Below, piece by piece: positions 547 through 4,657 of a stretch of 5,148 nt of DNA (position 1 is its first letter; the number at the start of each line of letters is the position of its first letter). Location of the stretch: contig JAUXIQ010000175.1 of NCBI GenBank assembly GCA_030620925.1, positions 1 through 5,148 of the forward strand. Direction: 5' to 3'. Position numbers and translations under genes: made by a program. The notes under the pieces were generated by a model. That model worked only from the letters and a program-made list of their open reading frames with translations, was not told the DNA's origin and ran no database searches. Source of the stretch: JAUXIQ01 sp030620925 [NCBI: Nitrospinota bacterium] (GTDB lineage: Bacteria; JAUXIQ01).

Positions 547-1281
547 TCACCCCTTTTTCTTTACCTGCTTCGCCAGGGCGGTAATCCGCTCCCGGCTCTC
601 GGCGCGCGCTTCGTTCAATCCCTGTGAAGTCACCTGGCCGTCCTTGAAGTAGCTGAGTATTATTTCCTCGGCAGCAACGAATTCAGCGCAAGCGTGCGGG
701 AGTTCCGGGGCGATTTCGGCCGGTATCGTAGTCACCCCGTTACAATCGCCGTGCAGCAGGTCTCCGTGGTATACGGTGATGCCGCCGACGTGGACCGCAA
801 CCTGGAGGTCCAAAAAGTGCACGTAACCGTGCGCACAAATAGTGCCGTTGCTGAAGGCCGGAAACCCCAGCGCCCGCACCTGATCGAGGTCGCGGGCTGC
901 GCCGCTGGTCACCAGGCCAACCGCGCCGAAGGTCTTGTACGTTGTACACATGATCTCGCCGAAAGTCGCTGCAGCCGTGGGGTCGTCGAGGTCTTGAAAA
1001 ACCACCACTGCCGGCCCGGGCAGATCGCCGAAAGTTTCGATTTGTTGGTCGAAGTTGGCGTAGTCACCCCCTGCCGCCGGCTGCCCTGCCGAGCGAAACG
1101 TCGCCGTGGAGGCATAACCCACCATCGGCGGCATCTCCGGGAAGCAGGCCTTGATGCGGCTGTCCATGTATCCGGTGTTGCGGGGCCGCACGTTGAAGAC
1201 CTCGATGGCGTTGCAGACCGTAGGGGTATCATATTGCCGCAGCAGCTCCAGGTCTTTGTCGGAAAGCGTTTTGTTGTTCAC
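547..1281 (-). CDS. RraA-like / HMG-aldolase-family protein
   Basis: The 244-aa product belongs to the RraA-like superfamily, which includes 4-hydroxy-4-methyl-2-oxoglutarate (HMG) aldolases, oxaloacetate decarboxylases and the RNase E inhibitor RraA. Family landmarks are DTPTVCNAI near residue 20, GE at 108-109, the core GAVGLVTSGAARDLDQV at 119-135 with the conserved Arg130-Asp131, and GDLLHGDCNGVTTIP toward the C terminus. The usual Asp-Gly before the Arg-Asp pair is Ser126-Gly127 here. Known enzymes act as soluble oligomers with a divalent metal and cleave or decarboxylate pyruvate-type substrates. At about 244 aa it is longer than E. coli RraA (about 160 aa) and nearer the catabolic members, so an enzyme is more likely than an RNase regulator. 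GTG at 1281 is chosen because AGGAG lies about 8 nt upstream; TTG at 1287 is too close to it. The next gene follows without a gap. Exact substrate is unknown. Confidence 0.85.
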   Translation of the reverse strand: MNNKTLSDKDLELLRQYDTPTVCNAIEVFNVRPRNTGYMDSRIKACFPEMPPMVGYASTATFRSAGQPAAGGDYANFDQQIETFGDLPGPAVVVFQDLDDPTAAATFGEIMCTTYKTFGAVGLVTSGAARDLDQVRALGFPAFSNGTICAHGYVHFLDLQVAVHVGGITVYHGDLLHGDCNGVTTIPAEIAPELPHACAEFVAAEEIILSYFKDGQVTSQGLNEARAESRERITALAKQVKKKG

Positions 1282-1371
1282 GTTCAAATCTCCTCTTACT
1301 GAAAATCGAGCCTCCGAACCTTCGAATCATCCCTCCGGAACCGTCGTCTGACGCACTAAACAGAAGCCATG

Positions 1372-1845
1372 CTACTCTTCAATTTCATAGCAGAAATCGC
1401 AAACGTCGTCGCCCTGCATGATGGTCTTGGGGCGAGTGAGTTTCATCCTGGGGTTAAAACCTTTCACCATGGCGAAATCACGGCCGCAAGCCAATAGATA
1501 ACCGAGGTCCCTTATCCCCAATTCCTCGAACATCTTAACGTAATCGCAGCGTGTTATGTTGACTGCAAACTTAGCAGGGTTATGCTCCACAATCTCCAAA
1601 TCGTGGACACCGCCTTCGGAGAATGCTTCGGATGCCTTGAGATAATGCCTGAAGCTGTTATTCCCCATGATGCGCCCCAGCTCGGCACCCGTTTCGAAAG
1701 ATAAAGTTTCCAGAACCTCCTCGGCTATCTTCAGGGTTTTTTCTTCGCCGAACTCCTTCATGAAAGCCTTTATTAAAGGACCGGCTATGCGTGCTTCGGT
1801 CTCAGTAGTTTTTAGCCCGAGCAATCTGCTCAGATCAGCGCTCAT
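1372..1845 (-). CDS. L-2-amino-thiazoline-4-carboxylic acid hydrolase-like protein
   Basis: The 157-aa product matches my knowledge of the ATC hydrolase family (AtcC-like), named for a Pseudomonas enzyme that opens the thiazoline ring on the way to L-cysteine. Most homologs in anaerobes have no tested role. Recognisable parts are a helical N-terminal half, then NITRCDYVKMFEELG (96-110), DLGYLLACGRDFAM (113-126), GFNP (129-132), and the C-terminal TIMQGDDVCDFCYEIEE. Cys100, Cys120, Cys149 and Cys152 are candidate metal or catalytic residues. There is no signal peptide or membrane segment. ATG at 1845 lies 7 nt after GGAGG. ATG at 1848 is equally in frame, and ATG at 1860 overlaps the GGAGGG and has no good site of its own. 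The gene heads a minus-strand group with the RraA-like gene, about 90 nt downstream with no terminator between. Family is fairly sure; substrate is not. Confidence 0.8.
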   Translation of the reverse strand: MSADLSRLLGLKTTETEARIAGPLIKAFMKEFGEEKTLKIAEEVLETLSFETGAELGRIMGNNSFRHYLKASEAFSEGGVHDLEIVEHNPAKFAVNITRCDYVKMFEELGIRDLGYLLACGRDFAMVKGFNPRMKLTRPKTIMQGDDVCDFCYEIEE

Positions 1846-1911
1846 CATTAACCCTCCCATCAGTTTGATGCAGTGCCTCGCTGAAACCCGACCCCCCTAC
1901 GAATTTTCTGT

Positions 1912-2003: not shown

Positions 2004-2032
2004 TTGACAGGATAATAGGACAAGAGTATAGT
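2004..2032 (+). promoter_or_regulatory. strong sigma-70-type promoter for the leader and small cysteine protein
   Basis: A perfect TTGACA -35 (2004-2009), exactly 17 nt, then TATAGT (2027-2032, five of six bases to consensus). Transcription should begin near 2039, just before the folded leader. The -35 lies inside the small palindrome CTGTTGACAG (2001-2010), which might be a protein site. This is the best promoter in the window. Confidence 0.75.
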
Positions 2033-2045
2033 ATAGTAAATTTTT

Positions 2046-2129
2046 GTTGACGTTCGTTGATGAGCGTTAACCGGAAGGCGACGAGGTCTTCCGTGGTGAA
2101 AAATCACCCGGGGGACCTTTTTTATTTTT
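2046..2129 (+). ncRNA. riboswitch-like or attenuator-like leader RNA with alternative hairpins
   Basis: Three stems can be drawn from the sequence. P1 (2046-2071) pairs GTTGACGTTC with GAGCGTTAAC, 10 bp including two G-U pairs, with a GTTGAT loop. P2 (2072-2093) pairs CGGAAGGC with GTCTTCCG-side bases, 8 bp with a six-base loop. The third is a long terminator stem (2085-2117). P2 and the terminator both need bases 2085-2093 and so exclude each other, the hallmark of transcription attenuation. The leader starts within about 10 nt of the predicted transcription start and ends in a T tract ahead of the 60-aa gene. I could not match it to a riboswitch class I know. The signal might be a metabolite, metal, protein or tRNA. 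No leader peptide lies before the terminator, so classical ribosome-mediated attenuation is less likely. Confidence 0.6.
2085..2129 (+). terminator. strong intrinsic terminator inside the leader
   Basis: GGTCTTCCG (2085-2093), a bulged T and GGTGA (2095-2099) pair with TCACC (2104-2108) and CGGGGGACC (2109-2117): 14 bp with two G-U pairs, closed by an AAAA loop. The stem runs straight into TTTTTTATTTTT (2118-2129). It lies between the promoter and the downstream gene, so it must be conditional if that gene is expressed from 2004-2032. Its 5' arm overlaps the alternative hairpin at 2072-2093. Confidence 0.8.
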
Positions 2130-2141
2130 CGGCTTCCCTCA

Positions 2142-2183
2142 ATGAAATGGAGATGCTGCCCCTGCTGCGGAAAGGAGATTTAA
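2142..2183 (+). CDS. 13-codon cysteine-rich upstream ORF (MKWRCCPCCGKEI)
   Basis: This short ORF runs from ATG to TAA and ends one base before the GTG start of the next gene. Four of its thirteen residues are cysteines in a CCPCCGKE motif like a zinc knuckle, echoing the CPQCGKK at the start of the following protein. Its GGA-AAG-GAG codons are also the Shine-Dalgarno site of that gene, so translation of one would affect the other. It has no clear ribosome-binding site of its own (CTTCCCTCA precedes it). It could be a regulatory peptide, the original N-terminus of the next gene separated by a one-base frame change, or chance. Confidence 0.3.
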   Translation: MKWRCCPCCGKEI

Positions 2184-2184
2184 A

Positions 2185-2367
2185 GTGATAGAGATAGAAT
2201 GTCCCCAGTGCGGCAAGAAGGTCAATAAAAAGGATTACCGTTTTCACAGAAAAATCGAGGATGCCATACTGGATTTAATGAAAAATAATCGTCCTCAATG
2301 GCTAGACGAATACGGAAGCTGCCCAAAGTGGCTGGCAAACTACAAAGCCATGTTCTGCCCCAATTAG
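2185..2367 (+). CDS. 60-aa four-cysteine (zinc-ribbon-like) protein of unknown function
   Basis: I do not recognise a family. The product starts with a knuckle CPQCGKKV (Cys6, Cys9), continues with a basic stretch KKDYRFHRK (15-23, with His21) and a probable helix IEDAILDLMKN, and ends with GSCPKWLANYKAMFCPN (Cys46, Cys58). Two cysteine pairs could bind one zinc. There is no signal peptide or membrane segment. The GTG start is decided by AAAGGAG, with 7 nt between GGAG and the start. The gene is AT-rich (about 35% G+C in 2221-2280), unlike the roughly 70% G+C of parts of its neighbours, and it is the only gene on this strand in the middle of the window. Its own promoter and conditional leader argue that it is real and regulated. 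Nucleic-acid binding or metal sensing are possible but unproven. Confidence 0.65.
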   Translation: MIEIECPQCGKKVNKKDYRFHRKIEDAILDLMKNNRPQWLDEYGSCPKWLANYKAMFCPN

Positions 2368-2440: not shown

Positions 2441-3514
2441 TCAGGCGGTTAAAATGACGCTGCGGATGGTGGTATTTTTATCAAGCAGGTCGAGAGCGGT
2501 ATTGACCCCATCCAGCGGGAACGTCCCGGTAACCAGATCATCGAGCGGCAGACGGCCCTGCAGATATAGGTCTACGAGATAGGGGAAATCGTGCGGCGGG
2601 TGCTCAGAGCCGACCAGTGACCCGCGCAAGGTGCGGTCCATGAGCAGATGGAACGGACTGAAGTTGAGCCTGTCGGCAAACGATGGCACACCGACGACTA
2701 CGGTCGTCCCCCCGGGTAGTGTCGCCTTCATGGCCTTTAACATGGCATCAGTAGTCCCCACCGCTTCAATCGCAACGTCCACCCCTCCACCCATAAGTTT
2801 TTGAATATCCGACACGGGGTCTTCGGCGGTGATGGAATGCGTGGCCCCCACCCGCTCGGCGATTTCCAGCTTCGCCGGAGCGGTGTCCACGGCAATAATC
2901 TTCGCCGCCCCGGCCAGCCGCGCGCCCATCACGGCGGAAAGCCCTACCCCGCCGCAGCCGAACACGGCGACCGTCATTCCCGGCACGACTCCCGCAGTGC
3001 GCACAGCGGCGCCATAGCCCGTCATCACCCCGCATCCGATGAGGCAGACTTTGTCGAAAGGCGCTCTTGCATCGATCTTAATGGCCTGCCCCTGGTGGAC
3101 CACTACACGTTCCGCGAACCCCCCGATACTCATGTAGCGGTTCAGCTCTTCTCCATTACGGGTGAGACGCCCCCCTCCCGGGCTGGGATTCATGCCGACG
3201 CACAGGTATGGTTTCCCCCGCACGCAAGCCGGGCAGTGCCCGCAGCTCGGTGTCTGGGAAACGATGACGTGATCGCCCTGTTCCACTTGAGTCACCGAGC
3301 CGCCGACGTCCTCGACAACACCCGCTGCTTCGTGACCCAGAATAATGGGTAAGGTGACCATCTCACCGGTCATCTGCACGTTGCGGTCGCTGCGGCACAC
3401 GCCGCAAGCATGAACACGTATCAGCACGTCATCCGGCTCCAGGGCTTCAACGGTCAGCTCTTCCAAATTGACGGGATGCTTTTCCTTTTCCAGAACCACC
3501 GCTCGAGCTTTCAT
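2441..3514 (-). CDS. zinc-dependent alcohol dehydrogenase (MDR superfamily)
   Basis: The 357-aa product is a medium-chain, zinc-dependent, NAD(P)-linked dehydrogenase that interconverts alcohols with aldehydes or ketones in the cytoplasm. Catalytic zinc ligands are Cys40 (GVCRSD), His61-Glu62 (LGHEAAG) and Cys161 (IGCGVMTGYG). Structural zinc is held by Cys91, Cys94, Cys97 and Cys105. The Rossmann motif GCGGVG is at 186-191, and Asp210 at the end of the following strand suggests NAD over NADP. The cysteine pattern and TGYGAA segment place it nearer the class III/benzyl-alcohol-type branch than the short-loop alcohol dehydrogenases; substrate cannot be read from sequence. ATG at 3514 is chosen because AAAGGA lies 8 nt before it; a TTG-started extension to 3574 has no such site and no family counterpart. 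The gene follows the methyltransferase by 183 nt. Its end faces the small cysteine gene, 73 nt away. Confidence 0.93.
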   Translation of the reverse strand: MKARAVVLEKEKHPVNLEELTVEALEPDDVLIRVHACGVCRSDRNVQMTGEMVTLPIILGHEAAGVVEDVGGSVTQVEQGDHVIVSQTPSCGHCPACVRGKPYLCVGMNPSPGGGRLTRNGEELNRYMSIGGFAERVVVHQGQAIKIDARAPFDKVCLIGCGVMTGYGAAVRTAGVVPGMTVAVFGCGGVGLSAVMGARLAGAAKIIAVDTAPAKLEIAERVGATHSITAEDPVSDIQKLMGGGVDVAIEAVGTTDAMLKAMKATLPGGTTVVVGVPSFADRLNFSPFHLLMDRTLRGSLVGSEHPPHDFPYLVDLYLQGRLPLDDLVTGTFPLDGVNTALDLLDKNTTIRSVILTA

Positions 3515-3648
3515 CCAATAAGTCCTTTCAGGGGGCGATTCGATATATCCGTCTATATTAACCTTTGGGTTCAACCTCTACAGTACCGGCATCGGCGTCC
3601 ACATGATCGAAGTTGAGCGATTAGACTGTCTCCTCGTTTCCCTTTAGT

Positions 3649-3675
3649 AAGATTTCCAGGGGAATCTTGTTTTTT
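3649..3675 (+). terminator. intrinsic terminator facing the plus strand
   Basis: AAGATT(T)CC at 3649-3657 pairs with GGAATCTT at 3661-3668 (8 bp, one bulged T, loop AGG), followed by G and six T (3670-3675). On the minus strand the same hairpin is followed by ACTAAA, so it cannot serve the methyltransferase gene that ends nearby. No plus-strand gene ends just before it; the nearest candidate is the small cysteine gene ending at 2367. It may stop antisense transcription from running into the methyltransferase gene. Confidence 0.6.
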
Positions 3676-3697: not shown

Positions 3698-4657
3698 CTA
3701 ATAGTTATCCAGCGCTTCCATTAAGGCATTGAGATTTTCAAGAGGGGTATCGGGAGGAAGGTCGCACCCGGTACAGAAGCGCCAGTTGGGCACATCACTC
3801 ATTTTGTCCAGGAGCGCTGTGGTTTCCTCCACCACCTCTTGCGGAGTGCCTGATAGCATTGTACCAATAGGATTAAGATTTCCCAGGATCAAGACATTTT
3901 TAGGGACCAGGGGCACGATGGCGCGGATGTCCACCGCAGTATCGACGCTTATTCCACTGATCCCCGTTGCGCACATCTCTTCTATGAGGTGGGTGGAATC
4001 TCCACAGATATGCAGCAATATCGGCACCTTCATCTCTTCGACCAGCTTTTTAACAGGTGCGGCGGCGAACCTGGCGTAAGACTTGGAGTCCAGCAGGGAG
4101 GCCGTGGGGTCGCCCACGAAAAAAGAGCTGCAACCCATCTCCAACTGGGCATTACCCAATTCAATGCCGACCCGGGTGCAGAAATCCACCAGCTCATCCA
4201 CGAACTCGGGGTCGGAAACGGTGTTCATGAGGACATCTTCAAGACCTCCAAGGTTCGTAGCCAAGGTGAAAGGGGCGCCTATAGACCCCGATTTAGAGTT
4301 CTCCGGGTAACGCTCGCACATCAACCCGGCGGTCTTGAGCTGGTTGGGTAGTCTGCCGTCCTTATGGGGGTCGGGCACCTTGAGTCGGGCTAAATCTTCT
4401 CGGGTTTTAATGGGGTGGGTTTTAACAGATGCGGCCGCGTCGTCCTGGTAATATATTTCACAGCCGAGGACTTCCGCTATCGCCGATTGATCCACGAAAA
4501 AAGTGGGAACAGTACGGACGTTGTAAGTGTCCACCATGTTGGACAGAGTTCTGAAAGCCACCTCACCGTCAAGTATATTCTCTTTTATTGTAGTGTTGGA
4601 TAGCCGGGTGCTCACCGCTGCCATCATGGGTGTGCCCTTTCTTCTCTTTTTACTCAT
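3698..4657 (-). CDS. uroporphyrinogen decarboxylase-family (MtaA-like) methyltransferase
   Basis: The 319-aa product belongs to the URO-D superfamily, in the branch of zinc-dependent methylcobamide methyltransferases (MtaA, MtbA, CmuA-like) rather than heme-pathway HemE. The zinc signature of that branch is present: HICG with His216 and Cys218, and TGCDLPPDTPLENLNAL with Cys298, which lines up with the conserved third ligand; Cys295 is close by. It also has GDPTASLLDS, GISGISVDT and ILGNLNP segments typical of the barrel. Known relatives move a methyl group between a corrinoid protein and a thiol or tetrahydrofolate during anaerobic C1 or O-demethylation metabolism. No corrinoid protein, reactivase or substrate methyltransferase is in the window, so the partner is unknown. 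The ATG is supported by AAGGAG 7 nt upstream. The N-terminal stretch MSKKRRKG is unusually basic. Family is secure; substrate is not. Confidence 0.88.
   Translation of the reverse strand: MSKKRRKGTPMMAAVSTRLSNTTIKENILDGEVAFRTLSNMVDTYNVRTVPTFFVDQSAIAEVLGCEIYYQDDAAASVKTHPIKTREDLARLKVPDPHKDGRLPNQLKTAGLMCERYPENSKSGSIGAPFTLATNLGGLEDVLMNTVSDPEFVDELVDFCTRVGIELGNAQLEMGCSSFFVGDPTASLLDSKSYARFAAAPVKKLVEEMKVPILLHICGDSTHLIEEMCATGISGISVDTAVDIRAIVPLVPKNVLILGNLNPIGTMLSGTPQEVVEETTALLDKMSDVPNWRFCTGCDLPPDTPLENLNALMEALDNY

What the first reader, a model, noticed from the sequence alone, without database searches (positions are those of the whole stretch)
2004..2185. Compact attenuator or riboswitch-like leader of no class I recognise, controlling a tiny cysteine protein
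Seen: a near-consensus promoter, a 10-bp hairpin (2046-2071), an 8-bp hairpin (2072-2093) and a 14-bp terminator stem with T tract (2085-2129). The second hairpin and the terminator share bases 2085-2093 and cannot form together. Known: this on/off layout is typical of transcription-attenuating riboswitches and protein-responsive leaders. Inferred: the pre-terminator RNA is only about 45 nt, so the sensor would be very small. The controlled gene is an uncharacterised four-cysteine protein, so metal or thiol status is one guess for the signal.
Basis: partly seen in the sequence, partly recalled or inferred. Interest (0 to 1): 0.75.

Follow-up and report, generated by a model that had tools for sequence, protein, structure and literature searches.

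The report
ANTAR-like dual-hexaloop leader before small gene
A short RNA switch in front of a tiny zinc-finger-like gene is built like the switches that ANTAR antiterminator proteins operate, with unusual loop letters, so it most likely extends a known control system rather than founding a new one.

Summary
In detail: an 11-of-12 sigma-70 promoter, a 10-bp hairpin P1 (2046-2071), an 8-bp hairpin P2 (2072-2093) and a strong terminator (2083-2129) whose 5' arm contains the 3' arm of P2. A covariance search found the same leader in another phylum (G072): all 26 modelled pairs kept, 7 by changes on both sides. A model of the two then hit leaders just after ANTAR genes (G290, 56 nt; G037, 209 nt), before an ANTAR gene (G355) and before type III glutamine synthetase (G226).

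Best reading: an antitermination switch for a 60-aa zinc-knuckle-like protein, off by default and opened by an ANTAR-type protein that holds P2.

It departs from the published definition: neither loop has A at position 1, the hairpins abut with no linker, and no ANTAR gene was found in the 89%-complete own genome. I call it a variant that works like an ANTAR target, not a filed member.

The parts
2004..2032 (+). sigma-70-type promoter TTGACA-17-TATAGT
   Evidence: 11 of 12 matches; G072 has TTGACA-17-TATGAT before its copy
2046..2071 (+). P1 hairpin, 10 bp, hexaloop GUUGAU at 2056-2061 (G4 at 2059)
   Evidence: all 10 pairs kept in G072, 2 with changes on both sides and 4 on one side
2072..2093 (+). 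P2 hairpin (antiterminator), 8 bp, hexaloop GACGAG at 2080-2085 (G4 at 2083)
   Evidence: 7 of 8 pairs kept in G072, no change on both sides
2083..2129 (+). intrinsic terminator: stem 2083-2119, T tract to 2129; its 5' arm includes the 3' arm of P2
   Evidence: 16 of 16 pairs kept in G072, 5 with changes on both sides
2172..2177 (+). ribosome binding site AAGGAG
   Evidence: sequence
2185..2367 (+). 60-aa small zinc-knuckle-like protein (GTG start); C6, C9, C46, C58, with Trp at the family's fourth Cys position

Best explanation
The leader is an ANTAR-type dual-hexaloop antitermination switch. RNA polymerase starts near 2039; P1 and then P2 fold as they emerge. By default the stronger terminator (2083-2119) invades P2 and transcription stops in the T tract at about 2118-2129. 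When an activated dimeric ANTAR-type regulator, probably of a PAS-ANTAR-like kind as found beside the related G290 leader, binds the hexaloops, it keeps P2 folded, the terminator cannot form, and the 60-aa gene is transcribed. Shown here: the anatomy, the mutually exclusive predicted folds, conservation of the whole structure in a genome of another phylum, and the linkage of related leaders to ANTAR genes. Inferred: protein binding, the direction of control, the regulator's identity and its signal.
For: (1) A model built from the window alone (P1 plus terminator) hit G072 at 45 bits, E 2.3e-7, in a search of 290 genomes; the four other non-self hits (35.4 bits and below) matched mainly the terminator. 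(2) In the G072 alignment 26 of 26 pairs are kept, 7 with changes on both sides, against a shuffle mean of 3.5 (3 of 500 shuffles reach 7) and 0-1 when partners are slid. G072 also has abutting hexaloop hairpins, GAGGAU and GAUGAA, before the terminator, and a TTGACA-17-TATGAT promoter. (3) The two-sequence model over 385 genomes hit 14 genomes besides G072. Of the five at 30 bits or more, four have ANTAR (G290, G226, G355, G037) and one does not (G266); ANTAR is in 70 of 385 genomes; p 0.004. (4) Linkage: the G290 hit starts 56 nt after the stop of a response-regulator-PAS-ANTAR gene; the G037 hit starts 209 nt after a GAF-ANTAR gene and precedes a glutamate synthase domain gene; G355 has one leader before an ANTAR gene and one before a divergent chemotaxis receptor gene; the G226 hit, loops AAAGAA and AUUGAU, precedes type III glutamine synthetase. 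(5) Dual hexaloops with G4 in both loops ahead of a strong terminator occur at 1 of 104 such terminators in 80 background loci and in 0 of 9 R3-hit loci (8 ANTAR-less genomes), but in all 5 of L016, L140, L142, L143, L144. (6) Loop-to-loop register in the window is 24 nt, equal to eutP (A29 to A53, PMC3369931 passages). G4 is the only base-specific contact in the EutV-RNA structure (PMC8934654 passages).
Against: No ANTAR domain in the own genome, by Pfam profile up to E 10 (the profile does ring in other genomes) or by an alignment of eight ANTAR domains that had no positive control in that call; the genome is 89% complete in 445 contigs. Neither loop has A1, though A1 mutations reduced induction in the eut system (PMC3369931 passages). 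The linker is 0 nt; linkers are 5-12 nt in eut and 2-25 nt in the actinobacterial set, and shortening the eutP linker impaired it (passages). All 14 non-member hits taken together give only 6 with ANTAR, p 0.025. Two ANTAR-bearing hit genomes (G141, G051) do not show the motif at the hit itself, and in G355 the best hit lacks it while its neighbour on the other strand has it; of 12 ANTAR-gene loci only 3, already counted here, meet the rule. The P1+P2 model (R2) found G072 only at E 0.004 and missed G290. P2 shows no covariation of its own. The controlled gene is not an obvious nitrogen gene. In G072 the next gene starts about 260 nt downstream.
Confidence: 0.74

Rival explanations
1. A dual-hairpin attenuator worked by something other than an ANTAR protein: a small-molecule riboswitch, another RNA-binding protein, or the 60-aa zinc-knuckle protein acting on its own leader.
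For: No ANTAR domain found in the own genome; loops lack A1; G072, which has the closest leader, is also one of the 5 of 98 genomes with a match to the small protein (28% identity, with a stop codon inside the match).
Against: The G072 leader is not beside that match, and the loci of the own paralog and of four other relatives show no such leader. Related leaders lie beside ANTAR genes. No Rfam family passes its threshold in the window.
Confidence: 0.13
2. A small RNA of about 85 nt with its own promoter and terminator, conserved for a trans role (for example sequestering an ANTAR protein, as reported for EutX/rli55), with the small ORF downstream by coincidence.
For: In G072 no gene-like ORF with a ribosome binding site was seen close behind; the next begins about 260 nt downstream. 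An ANTAR-sequestering RNA is mentioned in PMC8934654 (passages).
Against: In the window the ORF with a good ribosome binding site starts 56 nt after the T tract with no promoter-like site listed between. P2 competing with the terminator is preserved in G072.
Confidence: 0.1
3. Not regulatory RNA: a palindromic DNA operator (P1) beside an ordinary constitutive terminator, with P2 arising by chance.
For: P1 is a near-palindrome just after the promoter (8 of 10 half-site letters identical); 116 of 708 unrelated stretches pair as well with the terminator arm.
Against: Both P1 mismatches are G-U wobbles, and the structure is kept with covariation in G072, with hexaloops and G4 in place.
Confidence: 0.03

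Closest known systems
ANTAR dual-hexaloop antitermination RNAs (eutP/EutV, nasF/NasR, amiE/AmiR)
   Same: Two tandem hairpins with six-base loops, G4 in both, P2 overlapping an intrinsic terminator, loop-to-loop register 24 nt as in eutP; related leaders lie beside ANTAR genes.
   Different: G instead of A at loop position 1 in both loops; no linker between the fully formed hairpins; 10- and 8-bp stems where the published definition asks for at least 3 bp; no ANTAR gene found in the own genome.
   Same: All three match CGUUY-NNNGAY-GARCG, then GGAAG 4-9 nt later, the top of P1 and the start of P2, then a terminator overlapping P2.
   Different: Different downstream genes; the G290 second loop is UCUGUG.
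A1/G4 leaders of the same two genomes, between a REC-ANTAR gene and a periplasmic binding protein gene
   Same: Dual hexaloop layout before a terminator.
   Different: Loops AACGGC and AACGGC with A1 (G290; G072: read by eye, not listed by the scan), as against non-A1 loops in the window type.

Membership tests
ANTAR-target dual-hexaloop RNA | two tandem hairpins, each with a six-base loop | tested here: met
ANTAR-target dual-hexaloop RNA | G at loop position 4 in both loops | tested here: met
   GUUGAU and GACGAG
ANTAR-target dual-hexaloop RNA | A at loop position 1 in both loops | tested here: not met
   G in both loops; the actinobacterial set is described as showing more than 50% conservation there, with a single point variation in the loops allowed (PMC8164766 passages)
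ANTAR-target dual-hexaloop RNA | linker between hairpins (2-25 nt in PMC8164766) | tested here: not met
   0 nt if P1 and P2 are fully formed; loop spacing equals eutP
ANTAR-target dual-hexaloop RNA | P2 overlaps an intrinsic terminator (attenuating class) | tested here: met
ANTAR-target dual-hexaloop RNA | ANTAR protein in the same genome | tested here: inconclusive
   none found, genome 89% complete; present in G072, G290, G226, G355, G037
ANTAR-target dual-hexaloop RNA | bound by an ANTAR protein and antiterminated by it | not testable with these tools
   needs a binding and transcription assay
Rfam riboswitch or leader families | match above the gathering score | tested here: not met
   one match up to E 5, ctRNA_p42d, 19.3 bits against gathering score 50, E 1.6

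The most novel reading that the evidence does not exclude
A subclass of dual-hexaloop antitermination RNA that dispenses with A1 and with the linker, read by a diverged PAS-ANTAR subfamily or, in this genome, by a non-ANTAR protein, and used to control a small zinc-knuckle protein in a phylum-level lineage with a single genome held.
Probability: 0.3. Interest if true: 0.6.

Novelty: new variant of a known kind. Interest (0 to 1): 0.4.

Why it matters
It suggests that ANTAR-style antitermination reaches poorly sampled phyla with loop letters that search models built on A1 may underrate. G072 and G290 carry both loop types and both ANTAR types (REC and PAS), so they offer a direct test of whether different ANTAR subfamilies read different hexaloops. 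It also gives a lead on the control of a small zinc-knuckle-like protein family for which no Pfam model passes its cut-off.

Tried and rejected
Rfam on the window and on L016: only sub-threshold matches. Relatives of the 60-aa protein in genome contigs, viral contigs and plasmids, and of window:1990-2370 in phages: none reported. Own-phylum DNA search: only the own genome is held. Other copies of the leader in the own genome: none (up to E 5). Hits of the single-sequence model in G126, G230, G207 and G114 were rejected as mainly terminator matches. G266 (bidirectional terminator) and the hits in the other ANTAR-less genomes were rejected because they lack the dual G4 hexaloop. The motif rule was written after seeing the alignments, so its counts are not blind; its background loci were fetched for a P2-like pattern, so they are not random DNA. 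A viral contigs pattern scan gave 30 stretches; R3 gave at most 21.7 bits there, taken as chance since the stretches were picked for P1 letters. Guanidine-II (mini-ykkC), CsrA-type, hammerhead and TwoAYGGAY resemblances were considered from memory only and not pursued beyond Rfam. Solved structures for the small protein family: only weak matches, best a probable lysine biosynthesis protein, E 0.0055; the row of G072 (L006) was left out of that protein alignment. Papers were seen as search listings and as passages only; no paper was read whole.

Full report
What is in the sequence. The window holds a promoter TTGACA-17-TATAGT at 2004-2032, then P1 (2046-2071), P2 (2072-2093) and an intrinsic terminator (stem 2083-2119, T tract to 2129), then a ribosome binding site and a 60-aa ORF at 2185-2367. 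Folding of growing transcripts gives P1, then P1 plus P2 (-25.5 kcal/mol at 2094), and the terminator displaces P2 from about position 2116. Leader 2039-2130 folds better than all 200 shuffles (z -5.1). Single-sequence tests of P2 are suggestive only: 2.2% and 3.1% in two shuffle tests, and 116 of 708 unrelated stretches reach 8 pairs with the terminator arm. The simple terminator scan missed the terminator.

Both hairpins have loops of exactly six bases, GUUGAU and GACGAG, with G at the fourth position, first bases 24 nt apart. Two hexaloop hairpins, the second overlapping a terminator, is the plan of ANTAR target RNAs. From passages of PMC3369931: A at position 1 and G at position 4 of each loop matter for EutV; the loops of eutP start at A29 and A53; linker changes impair induction; the majority of ANTAR-associated genes concern nitrogen. 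From passages of PMC8934654: G4 is the only base-specific contact in the EutV-RNA structure, and P2 is embedded in the terminator. From passages of PMC8164766: linker 2-25 nt, A1 and G4 more than 50% conserved in the actinobacterial consensus, and a single point variation allowed in the loops.

Conservation. The own phylum has only this genome among those held, and the own genome has no second copy of the leader. A model of the window alone (R1: P1 plus terminator) searched over 290 domain-level relatives matched G072 at 45 bits, E 2.3e-7 (E-values are rough). The other four non-self hits scored 35.4 bits or less and matched mainly the terminator. The G072 copy keeps all 26 pairs, 7 with changes on both sides; 3 of 500 shuffles reach that. 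P2, which shares its arm with the terminator, keeps 7 of 8 pairs with two one-sided changes and gives no covariation evidence of its own. A P1+P2 model (R2) found G072 at only 22.6 bits, E 0.004, in its phylum of 3 genomes, and missed the other two. The G072 loops are GAGGAU and GAUGAA in abutting hairpins, behind a TTGACA-17-TATGAT promoter.

Link to ANTAR. A two-sequence model (R3) searched over 385 relatives of G072 hit 15 genomes including G072 itself (strict filters). ANTAR (PF03861) is in 70 of these 385. Of the 14 non-member hit genomes 6 have ANTAR (p 0.025); of the five at 30 bits or more, 4 do (p 0.004). The links are physical. In G290 the hit starts 56 nt after the stop of a response-regulator-PAS-ANTAR gene. 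In G037 it starts 209 nt after a GAF-ANTAR gene and precedes a glutamate synthase domain gene. In G355 one leader precedes an ANTAR gene and another precedes a divergent chemotaxis receptor gene. In G226 the hit precedes type III glutamine synthetase with loops AAAGAA and AUUGAU; its ANTAR gene is on another contig.

A motif test. A rule requiring two hexaloops with G4 ahead of a terminator of 14 or more pairs was met at 1 of 104 such terminators in 80 background loci; in 0 of 9 R3-hit loci from 8 ANTAR-less genomes (22 terminators); in all of L016, L140, L142, L143 and L144; and in L152 but not L153. In L152 it lies about 0.7 kb from the R3 hit, and in L143 it is the second hit rather than the best one. 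Of 12 ANTAR-gene loci only L162, L163 and L164 meet it, and these are second copies of the G037, G355 and G290 leaders. Locus-level Fisher tests give p 0.0014 for 4 of 4 against 0 of 9, and 0.002 for 5 of 6 against 0 of 9. The rule was written after seeing alignments.

A non-A1 subgroup. Window, G072 and G290 share CGUUY-NNNGAY-GARCG followed 4-9 nt later by GGAAG; 9 of the 171 loci then held match, all of them copies of those three stretches. In both G072 and G290 a REC-ANTAR gene is followed by a leader with loops AACGGC and AACGGC and then by a periplasmic binding protein gene. For G072 the domains were tested and the loops read by eye. For G290 the loops come, with a 10-pair terminator, and the two genes are named by their close likeness to those of G072. 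G290 carries its non-A1 leader beside a PAS-ANTAR gene, and G072 has a diverged PAS-ANTAR gene on another contig. This suggests, without proof, that the PAS-ANTAR kind reads the non-A1 loops.

What fails. Neither window loop has A1, the hairpins abut, and no ANTAR domain was found in the own genome up to E 10, nor with an alignment led by the PAS-ANTAR domains (without a positive control). The controls also gave nothing, but the profile rings in 6 of 41 and 70 of 385 other genomes. The assembly is 89.5% complete in 445 contigs with 3.55% contamination, so the regulator may be missing or the 5-kb contig misbinned. I therefore say that it works like an ANTAR target and is a variant of that kind, not that membership is shown.

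The gene. The 60-aa protein belongs to a small C-x2-C ... C-x2-C family matched in 5 of 98 genomes including the own one. The window member has Trp at the fourth Cys position and a further Cys at 58. The loci of the paralog and of the four distant relatives show no such leader. Nothing found speaks for metal or thiol sensing by the RNA.

Mechanism. By default the terminator forms and the gene is off; an activated ANTAR-type dimer visits P1 and then holds P2, and the gene is on. Anatomy, conservation and linkage are shown; binding, signal and direction are inferred from the ANTAR literature cited.

Noticed in passing
L155 about 1895-2020; L156 1300-1150 (-): G290 and G072 carry a leader with loops AACGGC/AACGGC between a REC-ANTAR gene and a periplasmic binding protein gene, with a possible third hexaloop upstream (AACGAA in G290, by eye).
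   Followed up: partly
L143 848-931 (-) and 1501-1585 (+): In G355 an ANTAR gene has a dual-hexaloop leader of its own, and a divergent chemotaxis receptor gene has a related leader, which suggests autoregulation.
   Followed up: partly
L142 1501-1582, L144 1501-1572: Dual-hexaloop leaders before type III glutamine synthetase (G226) and a glutamate synthase domain gene (G037), fitting the nitrogen theme of ANTAR control.
   Followed up: partly
L009 764-845 (+): Weak R3 match (19.3 bits) about 0.65 kb before an ANTAR domain in G027.
   Followed up: no
window 2185-2367; L007 1465-1695 (-): Small zinc-knuckle-like family with a paralog in the own genome next to an apparent Nudix-type gene and a queC-like gene (named by eye); no Pfam family passes its cut-off for the window protein.
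   Followed up: partly
window 1372-1860 (-), 3698-4657 (-), 547-1287 (-), 2441-3574 (-): Neighbours: ATC hydrolase family, URO-D (MtaA-like), RraA-like and zinc alcohol dehydrogenase genes, all on the opposite strand.
   Followed up: no
window 3646-3671: A hairpin of up to 11 pairs between two genes, not examined.
   Followed up: no
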